This document shows, one piece after another, positions 3,267-35,065 of a stretch of DNA of 38,425 nt. Source of the stretch: a virus. The notes below the pieces were generated by a model. That model had not been told where the DNA came from. It was given only the letters and a program-made list of their open reading frames with translations, and did no database searches. Where the stretch lies: the IMG/VR virus record IMGVR_UViG_3300022701_000137, positions 1 through 38,425 of that record; one strand, written 5' to 3'. The position numbers and the translations under genes were made by a program. The first letter of the stretch is position 1. Each line of letters opens with the position of its first letter.

Positions 3267-3300
3267 CAATAATTATTGGACTAAAAACCCTGTCAATATG

Positions 3301-3340
3301 TTTTTTGCTGTTTTTTGCTGTTTTTTGCTGTTTTTTGCTG
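3301..3340. repeat. Four perfect tandem copies of TTTTTTGCTG
   Basis: A 10-bp unit is repeated four times without a mismatch, followed by a degenerate CATTTTAAGA. It lies in the non-coding gap between the terminase block and the head-tail joiner. The spacing is close to one helical turn, so the T6 tracts are in phase and should give intrinsic DNA curvature. Slippage during replication could change copy number. Confidence 0.85.
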
Positions 3341-28308: not shown

Positions 28309-29253
28309 CTATGCGAACAGTTCGAGCTGTTCTTCTTTGCATTTTACAGACTCAAGGTTTTTGATGGCACAATCAAAATATGATTTTTTTAGCTCAATCC
28401 CTATAAATTTTCTCCCCATAGATATGGATTGATACCCTTCACTGCCTATGCCAGCAAATGGACTCAACACAACATCTCCTTTGTTCGACCATAGCTCAAG
28501 ACACCTTGCAATTGTGTCCAATTGCAACGGACAAATATGCCTCTCATCGTTTTTTTCTCTCGCCATTTTTACATTGAGTGTGTTCGTTTGATTAATGTCA
28601 AACCATACAGGCGAGGCATACCGTTGCCAGACTTTATGCGAATATTTGTTTACCCTCGGATTGTTGCTTTTTGGCAACTTCGGCATCTTCATATCTCCTA
28701 TGTAACGTTCAAAGCCCCTGCCGTGAGAAACGGGCTCTATATTTTCTCCCGGCTTGCGCATGGTGACTACATAATCGGGCAACCCCATTGCGCAACGAGT
28801 GGAGTCTTTTGATATTTGTTTGTGCGCCAACGTTATGTTTTTTGTTCTTACGGCTTGCACAAGGGGATCTTTCCAAATACAAACCTCTGAGTGATAAATA
28901 AAACCAAATCTCTGAAAGATTCTTATCAGATCTCCACGAAAGTCTTTTATACCAATATACCCATCATGGCCAATCGTCGCTGGAATATTCATGCAATGGA
29001 AAGATACAAGCCTGCCAGTTTTTAAAACGCGATATAATTCTGGCACAAGAAAAGAAAAGTGCTCTGCAAATTCCTCATCCGTTTTGCAATTGCCCATGTC
29101 TCGTTCAGAATTAGAATATGTAAACAAGGACGCGAACGGTGGCGAAAAAATGGAATAATGGATAGACTCATCATCAAAACCACCCAAAACCTCAACGCAA
29201 TCTCCTTGATACATTGCCCAATCTTCGCCGAATTTTTGATTTTCTACACTCAT
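28309..29253 (-). CDS. DNA methyltransferase, N4/N6 amino-type (beta class)
   Basis: A 314-residue site-specific methyltransferase. Motif order is IV first (FSPPFASL, residues 36-43) then motif I late (LSPFAGIGSEG, about 263-273) with FIGIELKKSYFDCA after it, which defines the beta class. SPPF suggests N4-cytosine or N6-adenine chemistry. The central 100 residues form the recognition region. It lacks a restriction partner, so it probably protects phage DNA. Its ATG overlaps the helicase stop (TAATG), giving tight coupling. Confidence 0.9.
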   Translation of the reverse strand: MSVENQKFGEDWAMYQGDCVEVLGGFDDESIHYSIFSPPFASLFTYSNSERDMGNCKTDEEFAEHFSFLVPELYRVLKTGRLVSFHCMNIPATIGHDGYIGIKDFRGDLIRIFQRFGFIYHSEVCIWKDPLVQAVRTKNITLAHKQISKDSTRCAMGLPDYVVTMRKPGENIEPVSHGRGFERYIGDMKMPKLPKSNNPRVNKYSHKVWQRYASPVWFDINQTNTLNVKMAREKNDERHICPLQLDTIARCLELWSNKGDVVLSPFAGIGSEGYQSISMGRKFIGIELKKSYFDCAIKNLESVKCKEEQLELFA

Positions 29254-30635
29254 TATACCCTCATGAAGTCTGGTTTTTTTATCGTAATTTTTGGCTCATA
29301 TTTCGTTGTCTGCCGCGATGTTTTTTTTATTTCGGACTTCATCAATATTCTCATATGATCAATCATCCCAGAAAACATATCTTGCATATCCTTTTCTTTT
29401 CTTTTTATGTTCAAGACTACATTTCCCTCTCTCTCGCCAGTAATAATATATGCGTTCACGGGTCGATTCTGACCGAATCTCCAGCACCGCCTTACCGCCT
29501 GATAATATTGCTCGAAAGAATCAGATAATCCCACGAAAGCCATGTTCGCGCAGGATTGGAAGTTCATGCCAAGACCAGCAATTGACGGCTTACTGACAAG
29601 ACATTTTATTTTACCGTCTGCAAAATCAATCATGGAACGCTCTTTATGAGATGGTTTATCAGCGCCCTTTACCTCAACTGAGCCGTAAATTTTGGATGCA
29701 AGCGCAGATGACTCATCATTAAGGTTGCACCACGCTATCCATGTTTCGTTTGATTTGTTTATTAATTCTGCGGTTATTGCTACACGTTCTTCCATTGACT
29801 CTTTTCGTGCGGATCTACGCTCAGACAGTGTGCTGGCTGGCTCCACAAATAAAGTTTCTCTTTGCCCTGTAAAAGGAATCGTCATCTCTTTGATGTTCAA
29901 TGGAGGAAGTACAAATCCGTTATTCTCAAAACCTATGTCGGATGGTTTTTGAATCATGACCGACCATGACGAAAGCCACTCCCAAAAGACACTGTTTGAA
30001 ACGTGCCCTTTTAGCCTCCAACAATTTGTTGTATGGCCTGTGTCATTGATGAAAAACATTGATAGCATTTCTGGCCTGGTCATTATCCCCAAAAACTCAG
30101 ATGTATTACCAAGCTCTGTGTAATCATTCGGTGATGGTGTCGCTGTGCAGCAAAGTTTGTATTTAGTGTTTAAAAAAGAACCAATTATTTTATTTCGTAT
30201 TTTTCCCGTGAAGTTTTTTAGTATAGAAGATTCATCAAGAACGATACCAGAAAAAAAAGACGGATCAAAGTTATCCAGCTTTTCATAATTGGTTATATTT
30301 ATGCCATTGATAACGTCTTCATGTTGCCTGCAAATGTTTACATCAACACCGAGTTTTTTCCCTTCTCTCCTTGTTTGCTTTGAAACCGCCAGTGGGGCCA
30401 ATATTAGAACCGGTGAATCCGTTTCTCTGTTTATAATCCTTGCCCATTCAATTTGTTGAAAGGTTTTTCCAAGACCACAATCCTCGAATAATGCGCAACG
30501 ACCTCTTTTTAATGACAACCGCACGAGTTCTTTTTGCCAGTCAAAAAGCATAGGGTTGACTTCGTCGGATTCAATATCGAATCCAATGGCGCCCTCCGAT
30601 ATTGTTTTTTTGCCTAAAAATTCGCTATAATCCAC
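29253..30635 (-). CDS. SNF2-type DEAD/DEAH-like helicase
   Basis: A 460-residue SF2 helicase. GTG at 30635 is preferred because GGAGG lies 6 nt upstream, inside the preceding gene. Motifs are I EDCGLGKT (51-58), II VLDESS (132-137), III CCTATPSPND and VI QAVRRCWRFGQ. The central Trp/aromatic segment matches phage SNF2-like helicases that often neighbour a methyltransferase. It could remodel protein-DNA complexes at replication or modification sites. It overlaps the upstream gene by 11 bp. Confidence 0.88.
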   Translation of the reverse strand: MDYSEFLGKKTISEGAIGFDIESDEVNPMLFDWQKELVRLSLKRGRCALFEDCGLGKTFQQIEWARIINRETDSPVLILAPLAVSKQTRREGKKLGVDVNICRQHEDVINGINITNYEKLDNFDPSFFSGIVLDESSILKNFTGKIRNKIIGSFLNTKYKLCCTATPSPNDYTELGNTSEFLGIMTRPEMLSMFFINDTGHTTNCWRLKGHVSNSVFWEWLSSWSVMIQKPSDIGFENNGFVLPPLNIKEMTIPFTGQRETLFVEPASTLSERRSARKESMEERVAITAELINKSNETWIAWCNLNDESSALASKIYGSVEVKGADKPSHKERSMIDFADGKIKCLVSKPSIAGLGMNFQSCANMAFVGLSDSFEQYYQAVRRCWRFGQNRPVNAYIITGEREGNVVLNIKRKEKDMQDMFSGMIDHMRILMKSEIKKTSRQTTKYEPKITIKKPDFMRV

Positions 30636-30981
30636 CGTCAACCTCCATCGTATCAGGATCAAGATTCCGGATTTTAATACCAAGCTTCAGAGCATAGTCT
30701 ATTTCTCGCCTAATTCCACGCGACATCGCCCATCCGGGCGCCTGGACGATGACCATTATGTCGCACTCTTTCAGCCAATCCAGATCAAGATTGACCCAAA
30801 AATCGGAGTCATTGTGATTGTCCATATATTTGGCTATCGGGTGGCTCATGCTGATCGGGGAAAACACCGAAAATTTGTTTGAAACAAACCACGCCGAGAC
30901 CTCGTTGACCAGTTCAAACCTTGCTTCTCTGACCGTTGCGTCCGGATGGCTGTATGGGCATGCAATGTAAATCCTTTTCAT
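30625..30981 (-). CDS. DUF1937/DUF4406-like protein (nucleoside deoxyribosyltransferase-like fold)
   Basis: A 118-residue protein starting at MKRIYIACPYSHPD, with GGAGG in the leader. The N-terminal signature IYIACPYSHPD, the middle VFSPISMSHPIAKYMDN, and CDIMVIVQAPGWAMSRGIRREI are typical of small proteins structurally related to nucleoside 2-deoxyribosyltransferases. Members are often in phage nucleotide-metabolism or early regions; a base-exchange activity is unproven. It overlaps the helicase start. Confidence 0.8.
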   Translation of the reverse strand: MKRIYIACPYSHPDATVREARFELVNEVSAWFVSNKFSVFSPISMSHPIAKYMDNHNDSDFWVNLDLDWLKECDIMVIVQAPGWAMSRGIRREIDYALKLGIKIRNLDPDTMEVDGGL

Positions 30982-30983
30982 AT

Positions 30984-31172
30984 TTAAACCCTCCAGAATA
31001 GGCCATACAGTAGCACCGCAAACCCGAAAACAATCAGGCTGTAAGATACGACCTGGACGAATATGTTTATCCAGTTTTCGCGGACCCACCAGCCGACATC
31101 AACGATAGTTGTCCACATCGAGTACAGGACCATTTTGAAGGCTTCCCGTCGGTTAAAATCAACACACATCAT
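30984..31172 (-). CDS. Small membrane protein
   Basis: A 62-residue protein starting at tandem ATGs (31172 or 31169) after GGGGAGG. The C-terminal half is one hydrophobic helix (FVQVVSYSLIVFGFAVLLYG), and the N-terminal half has amphipathic tryptophans (MWTTIVDVGWWVRENW). The start overlaps the stop of the upstream 57-residue ORF. Role unknown; early phage membrane proteins often mediate exclusion. Confidence 0.55.
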   Translation of the reverse strand: MMCVDFNRREAFKMVLYSMWTTIVDVGWWVRENWINIFVQVVSYSLIVFGFAVLLYGLFWRV

Positions 31173-31580: not shown

Positions 31581-32393
31581 TTATGCTGCATGTTTATGGC
31601 CAAGGTATTCCTCTTGATATGGCTCTCTTACCGGCAACCCTTCGATCGTTCTCCATGCGACGTAAAGGTCTTTCAAAAACATCTTTATCATATATCGTTT
31701 TGCTGCCTTGTGCCTATGATCCTTTGTTGTTTGGTTCCATGCCACAAACTCTTTTTTGCCTCCCTTTTTGGTCACTTCAACAAAGTTCTCAGATTGGGCC
31801 AATCGTTCTTTGTATGGGTAGTAATATTTCAGGGCATAAGGTGACTTAGCTTTTATAAATCCTTCTGCGAGAACACCCACCATTGCTTTTCTAAGGCGCT
31901 TGTTGAACGGGGCAACAAAACCAGACGTTAGTTTATCGCCGCGAATCATTTTATCAGTCGTGATATAGCTAAACGTACCGTCTTTGTTCTCTTTCCGTTT
32001 TTTGCCGACTACCATACCAGGATTCAATCCTGTAAATTGCCACATCTTTGAGACAGTAGTGGCAATCTCTATGTTATACTCTGCGATAATCCAACCCGCT
32101 GCGATTGGCCCAACACCCTTAACCTTGGAAAGGTATTCGTTGTAAATTTTGAATCTTTTGAGAACCTTTTTCAGTTTCTTTTCAATCTTATTTTCTTGTT
32201 CTTTCGCAGCTTTGGAAATGTCCACAAACATTTCATGATCTTCGACACTGATTACTCTTGCTGTTTTAATATCTTGTGTTGTACCGTCTGCTTTTCTTCC
32301 GATTCTGTTGTCTGTCCTTGTCCTCATTGATTGAAAGTCTTCGCGAAGTCTGACCAACATTCTTACGGCGGTTACATCTTCTCTGTTTTGCAT
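31581..32393 (-). CDS. tasA: TasA-like RNA-guide-associated protein (IS110/Nop-like, no nuclease domain)
   Basis: The ATG at 32393 is chosen because GGAGGGG precedes it; the open frame running farther upstream is array sequence. The 270 residues comprise a helical region (50-85, VISVEDHEMFVDISKAAKEQ then ENKIEKKLKKVL), then an IS110 Transposase_20-like block LSKVKGVGPIAAGWIIAEYN (88-107) with MWQFTGLNPG (117-126). A basic insert and C-terminal RLRKAMVGVLAEGFI and KRYMIKMFLKDLYVAW follow. The N-terminal DEDD/RuvC domain of IS110 transposases is absent, and no HNH is seen. In TIGR-Tas systems such Nop-domain proteins bind dual-spacer guide RNAs; the nuclease-less form is TasA. The adjacent 36-bp-period array strongly supports this reading. 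Confidence 0.75.
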   Translation of the reverse strand: MQNREDVTAVRMLVRLREDFQSMRTRTDNRIGRKADGTTQDIKTARVISVEDHEMFVDISKAAKEQENKIEKKLKKVLKRFKIYNEYLSKVKGVGPIAAGWIIAEYNIEIATTVSKMWQFTGLNPGMVVGKKRKENKDGTFSYITTDKMIRGDKLTSGFVAPFNKRLRKAMVGVLAEGFIKAKSPYALKYYYPYKERLAQSENFVEVTKKGGKKEFVAWNQTTKDHRHKAAKRYMIKMFLKDLYVAWRTIEGLPVREPYQEEYLGHKHAA

Positions 32394-32411
32394 GACCCCT
32401 CCTTTTTGGTT

Positions 32412-33032
32412 TGTTCGCTCTTGTGCGATGTGTTCATCTCTGTTTTTGGCTCGCTCCATCATTTTGTGTTTATCATGCCATTTGGCTCGCTCGTCCACGA
32501 TGTGTTCATCGATCTGCCTGGCTCGCTCGGGCTGCCTGTGTTTATCAACGGTCTTGGCTCGCTCCAGCGGTATGTGTTCATCGATTTGCTTGGCTCGCTC
32601 AAAGGGTATGTGTTCATCACCCTTTTTGGCTCGCTCGACTATCTTGTGTTCATCAAGCTCTTTGGCTCGCTCCATCAGTTTGTGTTTATCATGCCATTTG
32701 GCTCGCTCTTGTGCGATGTGTTCATCAGGAGGTATGGCTCGCTCGCACTGAATGTGTTTATCTTGTTTTCTGGCTCGCTCCGAAGGCTTGTGTTTATCGA
32801 CCTATTTGGCTCGCTCTGGCAGCCTGTGTTTATCGCGCCTTGTGGCTCGCTCCAGCTGATTGTGTTTATCATTTTTTTTGGCTCGCTCTATTGAAATGTG
32901 TTTATCGGCGCCTTTGGCTCGCTCCAGTTGATTGTGTTTATCGCCAATCTTGGCTCGCTCGTCCACTGTGTGTTCATCAATGGTTTTGGCTCGCTCGAGG
33001 TCCGTGTGTTTATCCCGAAAAATGGCTCGCTC
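32412..33032 (-). repeat. TIGR-like array, 36-bp period with two alternating repeats and two alternating spacers
   Basis: On the plus strand each unit is TGGCTCGCTC, 8 variable nt, TGTGTTYATC, 8 variable nt. Seventeen perfect GGCTCGCTC copies begin at 32448 and recur every 36 bp to 33024, plus a degenerate TGTTCGCTC at 32412. Seventeen GTGTTYATC copies run from 32430 to 33006 (ten with TTATC, seven with TCATC). This gives 34 short spacers with no length variation. Read with the operon, repeats are GAGCGAGCCA and GATRAACACA. The array starts one base after the ParB-like stop and ends at the Tas-like ribosome site, so it is probably co-transcribed. Size and dual-spacer layout equal the 36-nt tigRNA unit. 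Confidence 0.92.
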
Positions 33033-33033
33033 G

Positions 33034-33720
33034 TTATGCCGCAACCTTCTCAAGAATCTTATTTATAGCGTCGCTCAATTCCTGCAACGAACTCATGGTT
33101 TTTTCATCGGTAACGTCAATCCAGCCGTTGTTGATCCATCGAACAATCTGAGATGCCATAGAACAAACCGGGACGCCTCGATCCCGACGGACATGCTCGT
33201 TGTATTTTTTTTGAGGGATCTCCTTGCCGATAATGCTTTCTGCACCGCGTTTGATCGGCCGATTGTTTTTTGTCTTGCCGTTACCGATTACGACAACAGT
33301 AAATTCTGCCAGCCTCTTGATTTTACCGACAGGTATATTCAAAACTTTGGCAATGACTTCCGGTTCATCGCCATATTTCAATAATTTTTGGGCAATGGCC
33401 TTTTGGGAGAACCCGCTTAACGGTGCTCCATGTGCTGAATTTTCCTCGGCGAACCTTCGGATGACCGAAGCCTCATCTTTGAACTTTTCGGCTATAACTT
33501 CGATCTCGTGGTCTGGACCGAATTCCTCCATATACATGGTTACTCTGTGATTGCCACTGACCACCCGTTTAGTTTTCTGTTCGATGATTACCGGAGGGAA
33601 AACAGCTCCGCTCCTTGCCGCTTGACGATAGGTCGATACATAATAGATGTTGATTGGACGAAGCTCCAACAGCTTTGGATCAATAACCAAATCCCCTGCA
33701 CGTACTTTTTGTTTTGTCAT
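33034..33720 (-). CDS. ParB-like nuclease/DNA-binding domain protein
   Basis: A 228-residue protein preceded by AAGGAGGAG. Residues about 1-95 match the ParB N-terminal domain (LELRPINIYYVSTYRQAARS, VVSGNHRVTMYMEE; the SGNHR box corresponds to the CTP/nuclease motif). Residues 100-140 form a helix-turn-helix (SQKAIAQKLLKYGDEPEVIA, KVLNIPVGKIKRL). The C-terminal part resembles phage ParB-like regulators. Its stop lies one base from the first array repeat. It may regulate the operon or act with the array; many phages carry such proteins independently. Confidence 0.82.
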   Translation of the reverse strand: MTKQKVRAGDLVIDPKLLELRPINIYYVSTYRQAARSGAVFPPVIIEQKTKRVVSGNHRVTMYMEEFGPDHEIEVIAEKFKDEASVIRRFAEENSAHGAPLSGFSQKAIAQKLLKYGDEPEVIAKVLNIPVGKIKRLAEFTVVVIGNGKTKNNRPIKRGAESIIGKEIPQKKYNEHVRRDRGVPVCSMASQIVRWINNGWIDVTDEKTMSSLQELSDAINKILEKVAA

Positions 33721-34004: not shown

Positions 34005-34721
34005 TTAAAACTCGACAGCCTCCTGGCGGGTCATAAAGAAATGAATGCCGTGAGAACACTCATTATACCAACTCGGATCGTAGCTATTCGGCCAGACTTG
34101 TTCCCCGGTTCGATACCGAAAACCTTGGCCAATCCATGCACCGCACTCCTGTAATTTTTCCCCATCGCGCTCAATTTCCAAAACGATAGCCATTTCAGAA
34201 CGACATTTGCGCGAACCAACCGCGTTACACCTACGGGCGAACCACGGGATTTTTAATTTTATGATTGCACTCATATAGCCCTGTTTCCATGCGATAAATG
34301 TTCCTGATGGGGGACAGGATCGGAAGTGTGCGTAAACCTCAACCGGTATCCCTGTAGCTCCGCGCAAGTTAGCTCCGGACAAGTTAGCTCCACGCAGGCT
34401 GGCTCCGGACAAGTTAGCTCCACGCAGGCTGGCTCCGGACAAGTTAGCTCCACGCAAGTTAGCTCCGCGCAGGCTGGCTCCGTGCAAGTTAGCTCCGTAC
34501 AAGTTAGCTCCGTACAAGTTGGCTTCGTGCAAGTTAGCTCCGTACAAGTTGGCTTCGCGCAAGTCGGCTCCGCATAAGTTGGCTCCGCGCAAGTCGGCTC
34601 CGCATAAGTTGGCTCCGCGCAAGTCGGCTCCGCATTCCATCGCCGCCAAAACAGTCTTTCCCGTTGTGTTGTGCTTCGACTCAAACAGGATGTCACCCGT
34701 ATATTCGTTTCTTATCTTCAC
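34005..34721 (-). CDS. Pentapeptide-repeat protein
   Basis: GTG at 34721 with GAGGAGG 8 nt upstream is preferred over the longer open frame. The 238-residue product has about 18 pentapeptide repeats of the A(D/N)LxG type (residues about 28-120), which form a right-handed quadrilateral beta-helix. The C-terminal 115 residues (FIAWKQGYMSAIIKLKIPWF, CSHGIHFFMTRQEAVEF) are the domain usually following such repeats in phage proteins. Some pentapeptide proteins mimic DNA and inhibit gyrase; this one has no such evidence. It is the first gene of the leftward operon. Confidence 0.85.
   Translation of the reverse strand: MKIRNEYTGDILFESKHNTTGKTVLAAMECGADLRGANLCGADLRGANLCGADLREANLYGANLHEANLYGANLYGANLHGASLRGANLRGANLSGASLRGANLSGASLRGANLSGANLRGATGIPVEVYAHFRSCPPSGTFIAWKQGYMSAIIKLKIPWFARRCNAVGSRKCRSEMAIVLEIERDGEKLQECGAWIGQGFRYRTGEQVWPNSYDPSWYNECSHGIHFFMTRQEAVEF
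34356..34633. repeat. 15-bp tandem repeats coding the pentapeptide helix
   Basis: Units like AGCTCCGCGCAAGTT recur about 18 times, some in identical blocks (for example the CGGACAAGTTAGCTCC units and the CGCATAAGTTGGCTCC units). DNA-level identity beyond what the protein requires points to recent expansion by slippage or recombination. Confidence 0.85.
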
Positions 34722-34777
34722 TTTCGTTCCTCCTCTGTTGGGTTGGTTTATTTGGTGGTTTTTTTTGAGTATGGTTG

Positions 34778-34808
34778 TAGATAGCATGCCCGTTTTGGCC
34801 CTGTCAAG
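34778..34808 (-). promoter_or_regulatory. Leftward early promoter candidate
   Basis: On the minus strand TTGACA (34807-34802) is followed after 18 bp by TATCTA (34783-34778). The -35 box is perfect but the -10 is weak. It would drive the long leftward operon beginning with the pentapeptide gene at 34721, giving about a 50-nt leader. Confidence 0.4.
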
Positions 34809-34838
34809 CATTTTTTTCACGAAAATAGTACTTGACAG
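34801..34838. promoter_or_regulatory. Operator-like dyad CTGTCAAG / CTTGACAG
   Basis: A perfect 8-bp inverted repeat at 34801-34808 and 34831-34838, 22 bp apart. Each arm contains one of the divergent -35 boxes. A protein binding both arms would control both early promoters together; the neighbouring small HTH protein is the natural candidate. Confidence 0.5.
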
Positions 34839-34858
34839 TATTTTTTTTTTAATATATT
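34832..34858 (+). promoter_or_regulatory. Rightward early promoter, nearly leaderless
   Basis: TTGACA (34832-34837) and TATATT (34853-34858), 15 bp apart; TATTGA at 34855 gives 17 bp. Transcription would start within a few bases of the ATG at 34868. No ribosome site precedes that ATG, so the message is probably leaderless, as for lambda cI from PRM. Confidence 0.5.
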
Positions 34859-34867
34859 GAATTCCAC

Positions 34868-35065
34868 ATGGAAACCACAATTAAAAAAATCACACCGGAA
34901 ATAGAATCCAAGCTTGTAAATATTTTTGGGAACAAGGACAAGGCTGCCAGGGGGATCGGTATTACATATCGGCGGTTCTGTCAGATCCGGCAACGGGACG
35001 AGGTTCTCAACCGCAGGCTTGCTATGGTAATCCAATATGTCTTAAGCCAAAATCGAAATAATTAA
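34868..35065 (+). CDS. Small helix-turn-helix regulator candidate
   Basis: A 65-residue protein with a HTH-like segment (NKDKAARGIGITYRRFCQIR, about residues 22-41) and a following helix (LNRRLAMVIQYVLSQ). Size and position at the divergent early promoters fit a Cro-like or early regulator. No classical CI/Cro signature is present. The start lacks a ribosome site, and the promoter predicts a leaderless message. Confidence 0.6.
   Translation: METTIKKITPEIESKLVNIFGNKDKAARGIGITYRRFCQIRQRDEVLNRRLAMVIQYVLSQNRNN

What the first reader, a model, noticed from the sequence alone, without database searches (positions are those of the whole stretch)
31581..33032. Phage-borne TIGR-Tas-like system of the nuclease-less TasA type
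A 621-bp array with exact 36-bp periodicity has two alternating constant 10-mers and two alternating 8-nt spacers. It is followed on the same strand by an IS110/Nop-like protein without RuvC or HNH. Known TIGR-Tas systems (Faure et al., Science 2025, recalled from memory) use 36-nt guide RNAs with two short spacers and Nop-domain Tas proteins related to IS110. The new points here are the minimal TasA form, tight embedding in a leftward phage early operon, and possible partners (ParB-like protein, methyltransferase, helicase, RecE/RecT). A nuclease-free version may be used for binding or silencing rather than cutting (inference).
Basis: partly seen in the sequence, partly recalled or inferred. 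Interest (0 to 1): 0.97.

Follow-up and report, generated by a model that had tools for sequence, protein, structure and literature searches.

The report
Phage TIGR-TasA RNA-guided system with ParB
A bacterial virus carries a compact set of 17 paired short guide sequences plus a guide-binding protein without a cutting domain; it belongs to a family described in 2025, and what these guides aim at in nature is still unknown.

Summary
Minus strand 33032→32411 holds 17 exact 36-nt units: edge GAGCGAGCCA, 8-nt spacer A, loop GATRAACACA, 8-nt spacer B. The array fills the gap between a ParB-like gene's stop and the Shine-Dalgarno of a 270-aa protein. That protein passes the NCBIfam TIGR-Tas cutoff, matches solved TasH and TasR by sequence, and its model (pLDDT 91) has TasH, TasR and IS621 as best structural matches; no RuvC or HNH part is present. 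It is a TIGR-TasA system. Its supposed novelties (nuclease-free TasA, phage location, ParB partner, 10-nt repeats) are already in Faure et al. 2025, so it is a new member of a known kind. Of the proposed partners only ParB is supported (beside tasA in 9 of 20 relatives, always same-strand). New here: edge halves of neighbouring units covary across the seam (768 units), which marks the functional RNA unit and argues against a coding repeat; and arrays are hypervariable (two phages about 95% identical share 2 of 16 and 27 guides). Target searches (own phage, 2 Mb of related phages and host segments, 2.6 Mb of one relative's host chromosome) were negative. Likely function: guided binding or silencing of rival elements (inferred).

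The parts
33034..33720 (-). tasParB: 228-aa ParB-like protein, first gene of the operon (possible extension upstream)
   Evidence: PHROG 1033 ParB-like, E 3.7e-5. AlphaFold model pLDDT 90, best Foldseek matches pNOB8 ParB-N, Caulobacter ParB, KorB, Noc. Same-strand homologs near tasA in 9 of 20 relatives.
32411..33032 (-). TIGR array: 17 units of 36 nt (edge GAGCGAGCCA, spacer A 8 nt, loop GATRAACACA, spacer B 8 nt), closed by a degenerate edge
   Evidence: Direct parse; 17 matches against 0 in shuffles; same edge repeat in relatives.
32411..32420 (-). terminal degenerate edge repeat GAGCGAACAA, just before the tasA leader
32673..32708 (-). unit 10 (AATGGCAT / AACTGATG); near-copy of unit 16
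   Evidence: Same spacer A, spacer B differs by 1 nt.
32457..32492 (-). unit 16 (AATGGCAT / AAATGATG); near-copy of unit 10
32394..32410 (-). tasA leader with Shine-Dalgarno-like AAGGAGGGG before ATG 32393
   Evidence: sequence
31581..32393 (-). tasA: 270-aa Nop-domain Tas protein without nuclease domain
   Evidence: NF052498 132.5 bits, cutoff 100; TasH 21kl E 1.5e-15, TasR 9mty E 4.6e-11; model pLDDT 90.6, top Foldseek hits TasH, TasR, IS621.

Best explanation
This is a TIGR-TasA system of the tasParB type in a tailed-phage genome. The operon tasParB-array-tasA is read leftwards as one transcript. The array is cut inside each edge repeat into 36-nt tigRNAs of about the form AGCCA-spacerA-GATRAACACA-spacerB-GAGCG. 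Their ends pair with each other (edge positions 3-8 and 4-7) and each loop closes by its own 3-8 pair. A TasA dimer holds one tigRNA; spacer A pairs with one DNA strand and spacer B with the other, over about 16-18 bp. With no nuclease domain, TasA probably binds, unwinds and bends the target without cutting, and with its ParB partner blocks transcription, replication or inheritance of rival mobile DNA. Shown here: genes, array, family, fold, repeat pairing, linkage to ParB. Inferred from Faure et al.: processing and the target rule. Inferred only: one transcript, no cutting, role of ParB, rival DNA as target.
For: NCBIfam NF052498 above its cutoff. Sequence matches to solved TasH and TasR. 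Foldseek top hits TasH E 2e-12, TasR 9e-8, then IS621. Relatives carry 36-nt dual-repeat arrays with the same edge. Seam covariation: positions 3-8 pair in 761/768 units and 4-7 in 746/768; 1/1000 and 0/1000 within-locus permutations reach these. The window loop swaps G-C for T-A at the box C/D pair. ParB beside tasA on the same strand, before or after it. Faure et al. showed 36-nt processing for TasA, and tandem two-strand targeting for TasR and TasH (PMC12045711). No match of guides to own DNA or to a relative's host, as expected if foreign DNA is the target.
Against: No target was found for any guide, so the rival-DNA role is unproven. No RNA data exist for this array. The TasA-ParB link is genomic only. 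Faure et al. saw no phage or conjugation block with TasR in E. coli, only plasmid loss. The array lacks the terminator they call typical (none evident at its end).
Confidence: 0.6

Rival explanations
1. Same TIGR-TasA machinery, but its job is inside the phage or host: guides regulate the phage's own genes or host genes through partial pairing, as a programmable repressor.
For: TasA has no nuclease and sits in an apparent early operon. Window guides show a mild excess of weak matches (up to 4 mismatches of 16) to the own genome at the predicted zero gap: 97 against 71.6, 0 of 300 shuffles.
Against: No own-genome match with 2 or fewer mismatches in the window. The weak excess vanishes at other gaps and in the other loci and fits multiple testing. 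Guides of one lysogen's TasA do not match 2.6 Mb of its host chromosome. Arrays turn over too fast for fixed housekeeping targets.
Confidence: 0.2
2. Same machinery used as an RNA-guided DNA-bending aid to recombination, integration or DNA partition with ParB, not against rivals.
For: Faure et al. suggest the 180-degree bend could aid integrases. ParB is the only recurrent neighbour.
Against: Seventeen different fast-changing guides do not suit one fixed att or parS site. No recurring palindromic site in the window. No guide match in own DNA.
Confidence: 0.12
3. The array is a protein-coding repeat: 36 nt is 12 codons, and one frame reads ERAKxxDKHxxx almost without stops into tasA.
For: That frame has 1 stop in 207 codons and runs in frame into tasA.
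Against: The same frame has a stop in unit 7. Stop triplets in spacers are not depleted in any one frame across 764 guide pairs (5.4, 5.6, 6.1%). Edge halves covary between neighbouring units as RNA pairs. A strong Shine-Dalgarno sits at ATG 32393.
Confidence: 0.02
4. The protein is a decayed IS110 transposase and the repeats are unrelated.
For: Weak hits to Transposase_20 (E 0.088) and the IS110 model (32.9 bits against a cutoff of 140).
Against: The gene is intact, scores over the Tas cutoff, is conserved with arrays in dozens of phages, and its fold is closer to TasH and TasR than to IS621.
Confidence: 0.01

Closest known systems
TIGR-TasA with tasParB (Faure et al. 2025, PMC12045711)
   Same: Solo-Nop TasA, dual-repeat array with 10-nt repeats, ParB-like gene in the operon, phage setting, array between the two genes.
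   Different: Loop boxes are GAT...ACA (T-A closing pair) while the edge keeps G-C; spacers are 8 nt; no terminator evident at the array end.
SpTIGR-TasH of Salicola phage CGphi29 (HQ634153; PDB 9w04, 21kl)
   Same: Nearest annotated phage relative (34% over 176 aa), best Foldseek match, 16-nt combined spacers.
   Different: TasH carries an HNH nuclease; this protein does not.
TaTIGR-TasR (PDB 9mty)
   Same: Nop domain, tandem spacers, seam pairing of edge halves.
   Different: TasR has an N-terminal RuvC; its repeats start UG and end CCA, here they start GA and end CA.
IS110/IS621 bridge-RNA recombinases
   Same: Shared Nop-like RNA-binding fold (Foldseek E 7e-4).
   Different: No DEDD/RuvC domain; no bridge RNA or transposon ends noted (not searched in depth); under the IS110 cutoff.
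Spirochaetaceae MAG contig PUOW01000095 (L021)
   Same: Closest relative found: array-tasParB-tasA-array, TasA 69%, ParB 42%, same edge repeat.
   Different: Loop GAGAAACCCA; arrays on both sides of the gene pair; no guide shared.

Membership tests
TIGR-Tas | array of two alternating 8-12-nt repeats separated by short spacers (mostly 9 nt; 16-18 nt combined) | tested here: met
   10-nt repeats, 8-nt spacers, 17 units
TIGR-Tas | adjacent Nop-domain Tas protein | tested here: met
   NF052498 over cutoff; TasH/TasR by sequence and fold
TIGR-Tas | box C/D motifs that match between edge and loop and pair, edge halves pairing across processed ends | tested here: met
   GA...CA in both repeats; T-A for G-C swap in loop; seam covariation in 768 units
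TIGR-Tas | processing to 36-nt tigRNA | not testable with these tools
   needs small-RNA sequencing
TIGR-Tas | spacers A and B pair with opposite strands of one target | tested here: inconclusive
   no natural target found
TIGR-Tas | array ends in truncated edge and rho-independent terminator (typical, not obligatory) | tested here: inconclusive
   degenerate last edge present; no terminator-like site at the array end on its strand; tasA follows
TasA subtype | no HNH or RuvC domain | tested here: met
   270 aa; aligns to TasR residues from about 118 on, so the N-terminal RuvC part is absent; no nuclease family hit
TIGR-TasA with tasParB | parB-like gene in operon with tasA | tested here: met
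   same strand, ParB fold, conserved linkage
IS110 transposase | N-terminal DEDD domain and passing IS110 score | tested here: not met
   32.9 bits against cutoff 140; no N-terminal nuclease domain in the model
CRISPR-Cas | single repeat type of about 25-36 nt with long spacers and Cas proteins | tested here: not met
   10-nt dual repeats; no Cas hit among the genes scanned; no Rfam match

The most novel reading that the evidence does not exclude
TasA acts as an RNA-programmed loader for the ParB-like protein: each tigRNA turns a chosen sequence on a rival element into an artificial parS site where ParB accumulates and silences or disturbs the partition of that DNA, with a hypervariable guide bank re-aimed between closely related phages.
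Probability: 0.12. Interest if true: 0.88.

Novelty: new member of a known kind. Interest (0 to 1): 0.42.

Why it matters
The system is known, but its natural targets and the job of nuclease-free TasA and its ParB partner are open. This locus is compact and intact. The comparative set built here gives two handles: a covariation rule that fixes the guide unit in the TasA/ParB branch, and sister phages about 95% identical whose guide banks are almost wholly different, a natural experiment for finding targets and the way arrays change.

Tried and rejected
Targets: own window at spacer gaps -1 to 3; 20-21 related loci against themselves and each other; 723 guides against 2.08 Mb, made up of related phage DNA and 0.4 Mb of two Spirochaetota chromosomes; guides of two Spirochaetota prophages against 0.4 Mb around both prophages and against 2.6 Mb of one of those chromosomes; a three-variant guide pattern in 139 genomes of that family. 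All at chance level. An exact 16-mer scan of IMG/VR gave only scattered chance-like hits. Period-3 differences between paralogous guides looked like tracking of coding targets but failed on a larger set. Apparent stop depletion in spacers was an effect of base and dinucleotide make-up. Coding reading of the array rejected. parS-like recurring palindromes in the window: none. No notable intrinsic fold of three tested tigRNAs. ParB as a sole query in IMG/VR found no relative, so it could not be asked whether this ParB occurs without tasA.

Full report
Observation. The minus strand from 33032 to 32411 holds 17 complete units of exactly 36 nt: edge GAGCGAGCCA (17/17 exact), an 8-nt spacer A, loop GATRAACACA (17/17, one A/G position), an 8-nt spacer B, and then a degenerate closing edge GAGCGAACAA. 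The combined motif occurs 17 times and never in 100 dinucleotide shuffles. The array starts one base after the stop of a ParB-like gene (33720-33034) and ends just before AAGGAGGGG and the ATG of a 270-aa protein (32393-31581). No further copy of the motif and no known Rfam RNA is in the window. The window is a virus record of 38,425 bp with terminase, portal, capsid, RecT and DnaB genes and no exact terminal repeat of 12 bp or more.

What the protein is. It scores 132.5 bits against NCBIfam NF052498 (TIGR-Tas, cutoff 100) and only 32.9 against the IS110 model (cutoff 140). By sequence it matches the solved TasH (21kl, E 1.5e-15) and TasR (9mty, E 4.6e-11); with a 22-sequence profile these become 1.5e-24 and 1.9e-23. 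The AlphaFold model (pLDDT 90.6, pTM 0.84) has TasH (E 2e-12), TasR (9e-8) and IS110-type recombinases such as IS621 (7e-4) as its only credible neighbours. It aligns to TasR only from about residue 118, so the N-terminal RuvC part is absent, and no HNH was found. By the published definition this is TasA.

Partner. The upstream gene has a ParB-type fold (best matches pNOB8 ParB-N, Caulobacter ParB, KorB, Noc). With a profile, 9 of the 20 related loci first fetched carry it (two of them the same phage), always on the strand of tasA, either before or after it. Of the other suggested partners, methyltransferase, SNF2 helicase and DUF1937 recur together in one locus (L008, 5.7-7.9 kb away), RecE and RecT in none. 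So only ParB is supported as a partner.

Relatives and the array as RNA. IMG/VR gave 19 close loci, then 105 by profile, of which 80 were kept. At least 67 of the 83 other loci parsed carry 36-nt dual-repeat units (some of the rest have other repeats), mostly with the edge (R)AGCGAGCCA. The closest relative is a Spirochaetaceae MAG contig with array, tasParB, tasA and a second array (TasA 69%, ParB 42%). Two Spirochaetota chromosomes of a single contig carry more distant systems. In 768 distinct units, position 3 of the downstream edge pairs with position 8 of the upstream edge in 761 (G-C 561, A-T 127, G-T 73), and position 4 with 7 in 746. Permuting edges within each locus reaches these counts in 1 and 0 of 1000 runs; pairing inside one edge, or in the opposite sense across the seam, is worse. 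In the first 232 units all five units whose downstream edge has A at position 3 have T at position 8 of their own edge. The functional unit is therefore half-edge, spacer A, loop, spacer B, half-edge, as in the TasR structure of Faure et al.. In the window the loop uses T-A where the edge uses G-C at the same box C/D pair. The coding rival fails: the best frame has a stop in unit 7, and stop triplets are not depleted in any frame of the spacers.

Guide evolution. Within arrays some guides are near-copies: units 10 and 16 share spacer A and differ by one base in spacer B; units 9 and 17 share spacer B but not A. Over the set, pairs alike in both halves exceed chance (in the marine family 12 against 1.4 at up to 4 differences), so units are copied and diverge. 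Between marine phages L119 and L120 the aligned 16.9 kb are 95.2% identical, but the arrays share 2 guide pairs of 16 and 27; the matched part of TasA is identical. L110 and L111 (92.8%) share two guides, one at a different place in the array. Arrays are thus hypervariable loci. I did not find this in the main-text passages of the discovery paper that I read, but its supplements were not readable here.

Targets. With the published rule (target = spacer A followed by the reverse complement of spacer B, gap 0-2), no guide set has matches above chance in its own phage, in other related phages, or, for two Spirochaetota prophages, in the DNA around them and in 2.6 Mb of one of their host chromosomes. 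One set of three near-copies has no match in 139 genomes of that family. A mild excess of weak matches of the window guides to the window (97 against 71.6) did not repeat in other loci and is treated as multiple testing. A hint of three-base periodicity between sister guides did not hold on a larger set.

Mechanism. Shown: gene layout, family, fold, absence of nuclease, repeat pairing, ParB linkage. From Faure et al. (PMC12045711): 36-nt processing for TasA, TasR and TasH; tandem two-strand targeting without a PAM for TasR and TasH; a 180-degree DNA bend for TasR, thought likely for TasA. Inferred: TasA binds without cutting; with ParB it silences or destabilises rival mobile DNA. The absence of self and host matches and the fast turnover of guides fit rival elements better than housekeeping targets, but this is indirect.

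Novelty. Faure et al. already report TasA as the commonest effector, phage-borne loci, tasA-tasParB operons, 10-nt repeats, and arrays upstream, downstream or between the two genes. The locus is a new member of a known kind. The added value is the seam covariation in this branch, the hypervariability between sister phages, and a bounded set of negative target searches.

Noticed in passing
L119 and L120 (IMG/VR marine phages): Phages with about 95% identical DNA and identical matched TasA share only 2 guide pairs of 16 and 27; the array middle is replaced while both ends are kept. The cause of the turnover is unknown.
   Followed up: partly
L110:4499-4890 and L111:4088-4404: A TasA group with another repeat (ATGTATCA / AGAAATCCA-like) shows shared guides at different places in the array of phages 92.8% identical.
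   Followed up: partly
window 34005-34880 minus: Pentapeptide-repeat protein just upstream of the operon, with an 18-copy 15-bp tandem repeat at 34357-34633.
   Followed up: no
window 28309-31089 minus: Cassette of DNA methyltransferase, SNF2-type helicase and DUF1937 protein recurs in L008 (41-55% identity), also some kilobases from a tasA.
   Followed up: partly
L007:3705-4147: A different tandem repeat with strong 12-base sub-periodicity (TAGCGTGNNGNN) about 5 kb upstream of tasA, not a TIGR array.
   Followed up: no
L059:1040-1220 (G327, Spirochaetota chromosome): Three guides of one prophage array are variants of each other in both spacers (ACGGCCACG/AGCGCCGGG and two relatives); no target in 139 genomes of the family.
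   Followed up: yes
L021:2292-4280: Second TIGR array downstream of tasA in the closest relative; one guide there differs from an upstream one only at three adjacent bases of spacer A.
   Followed up: no
window 3299-3340: Four perfect tandem copies of the 10-mer TGTTTTTTGC between two structural genes.
   Followed up: no
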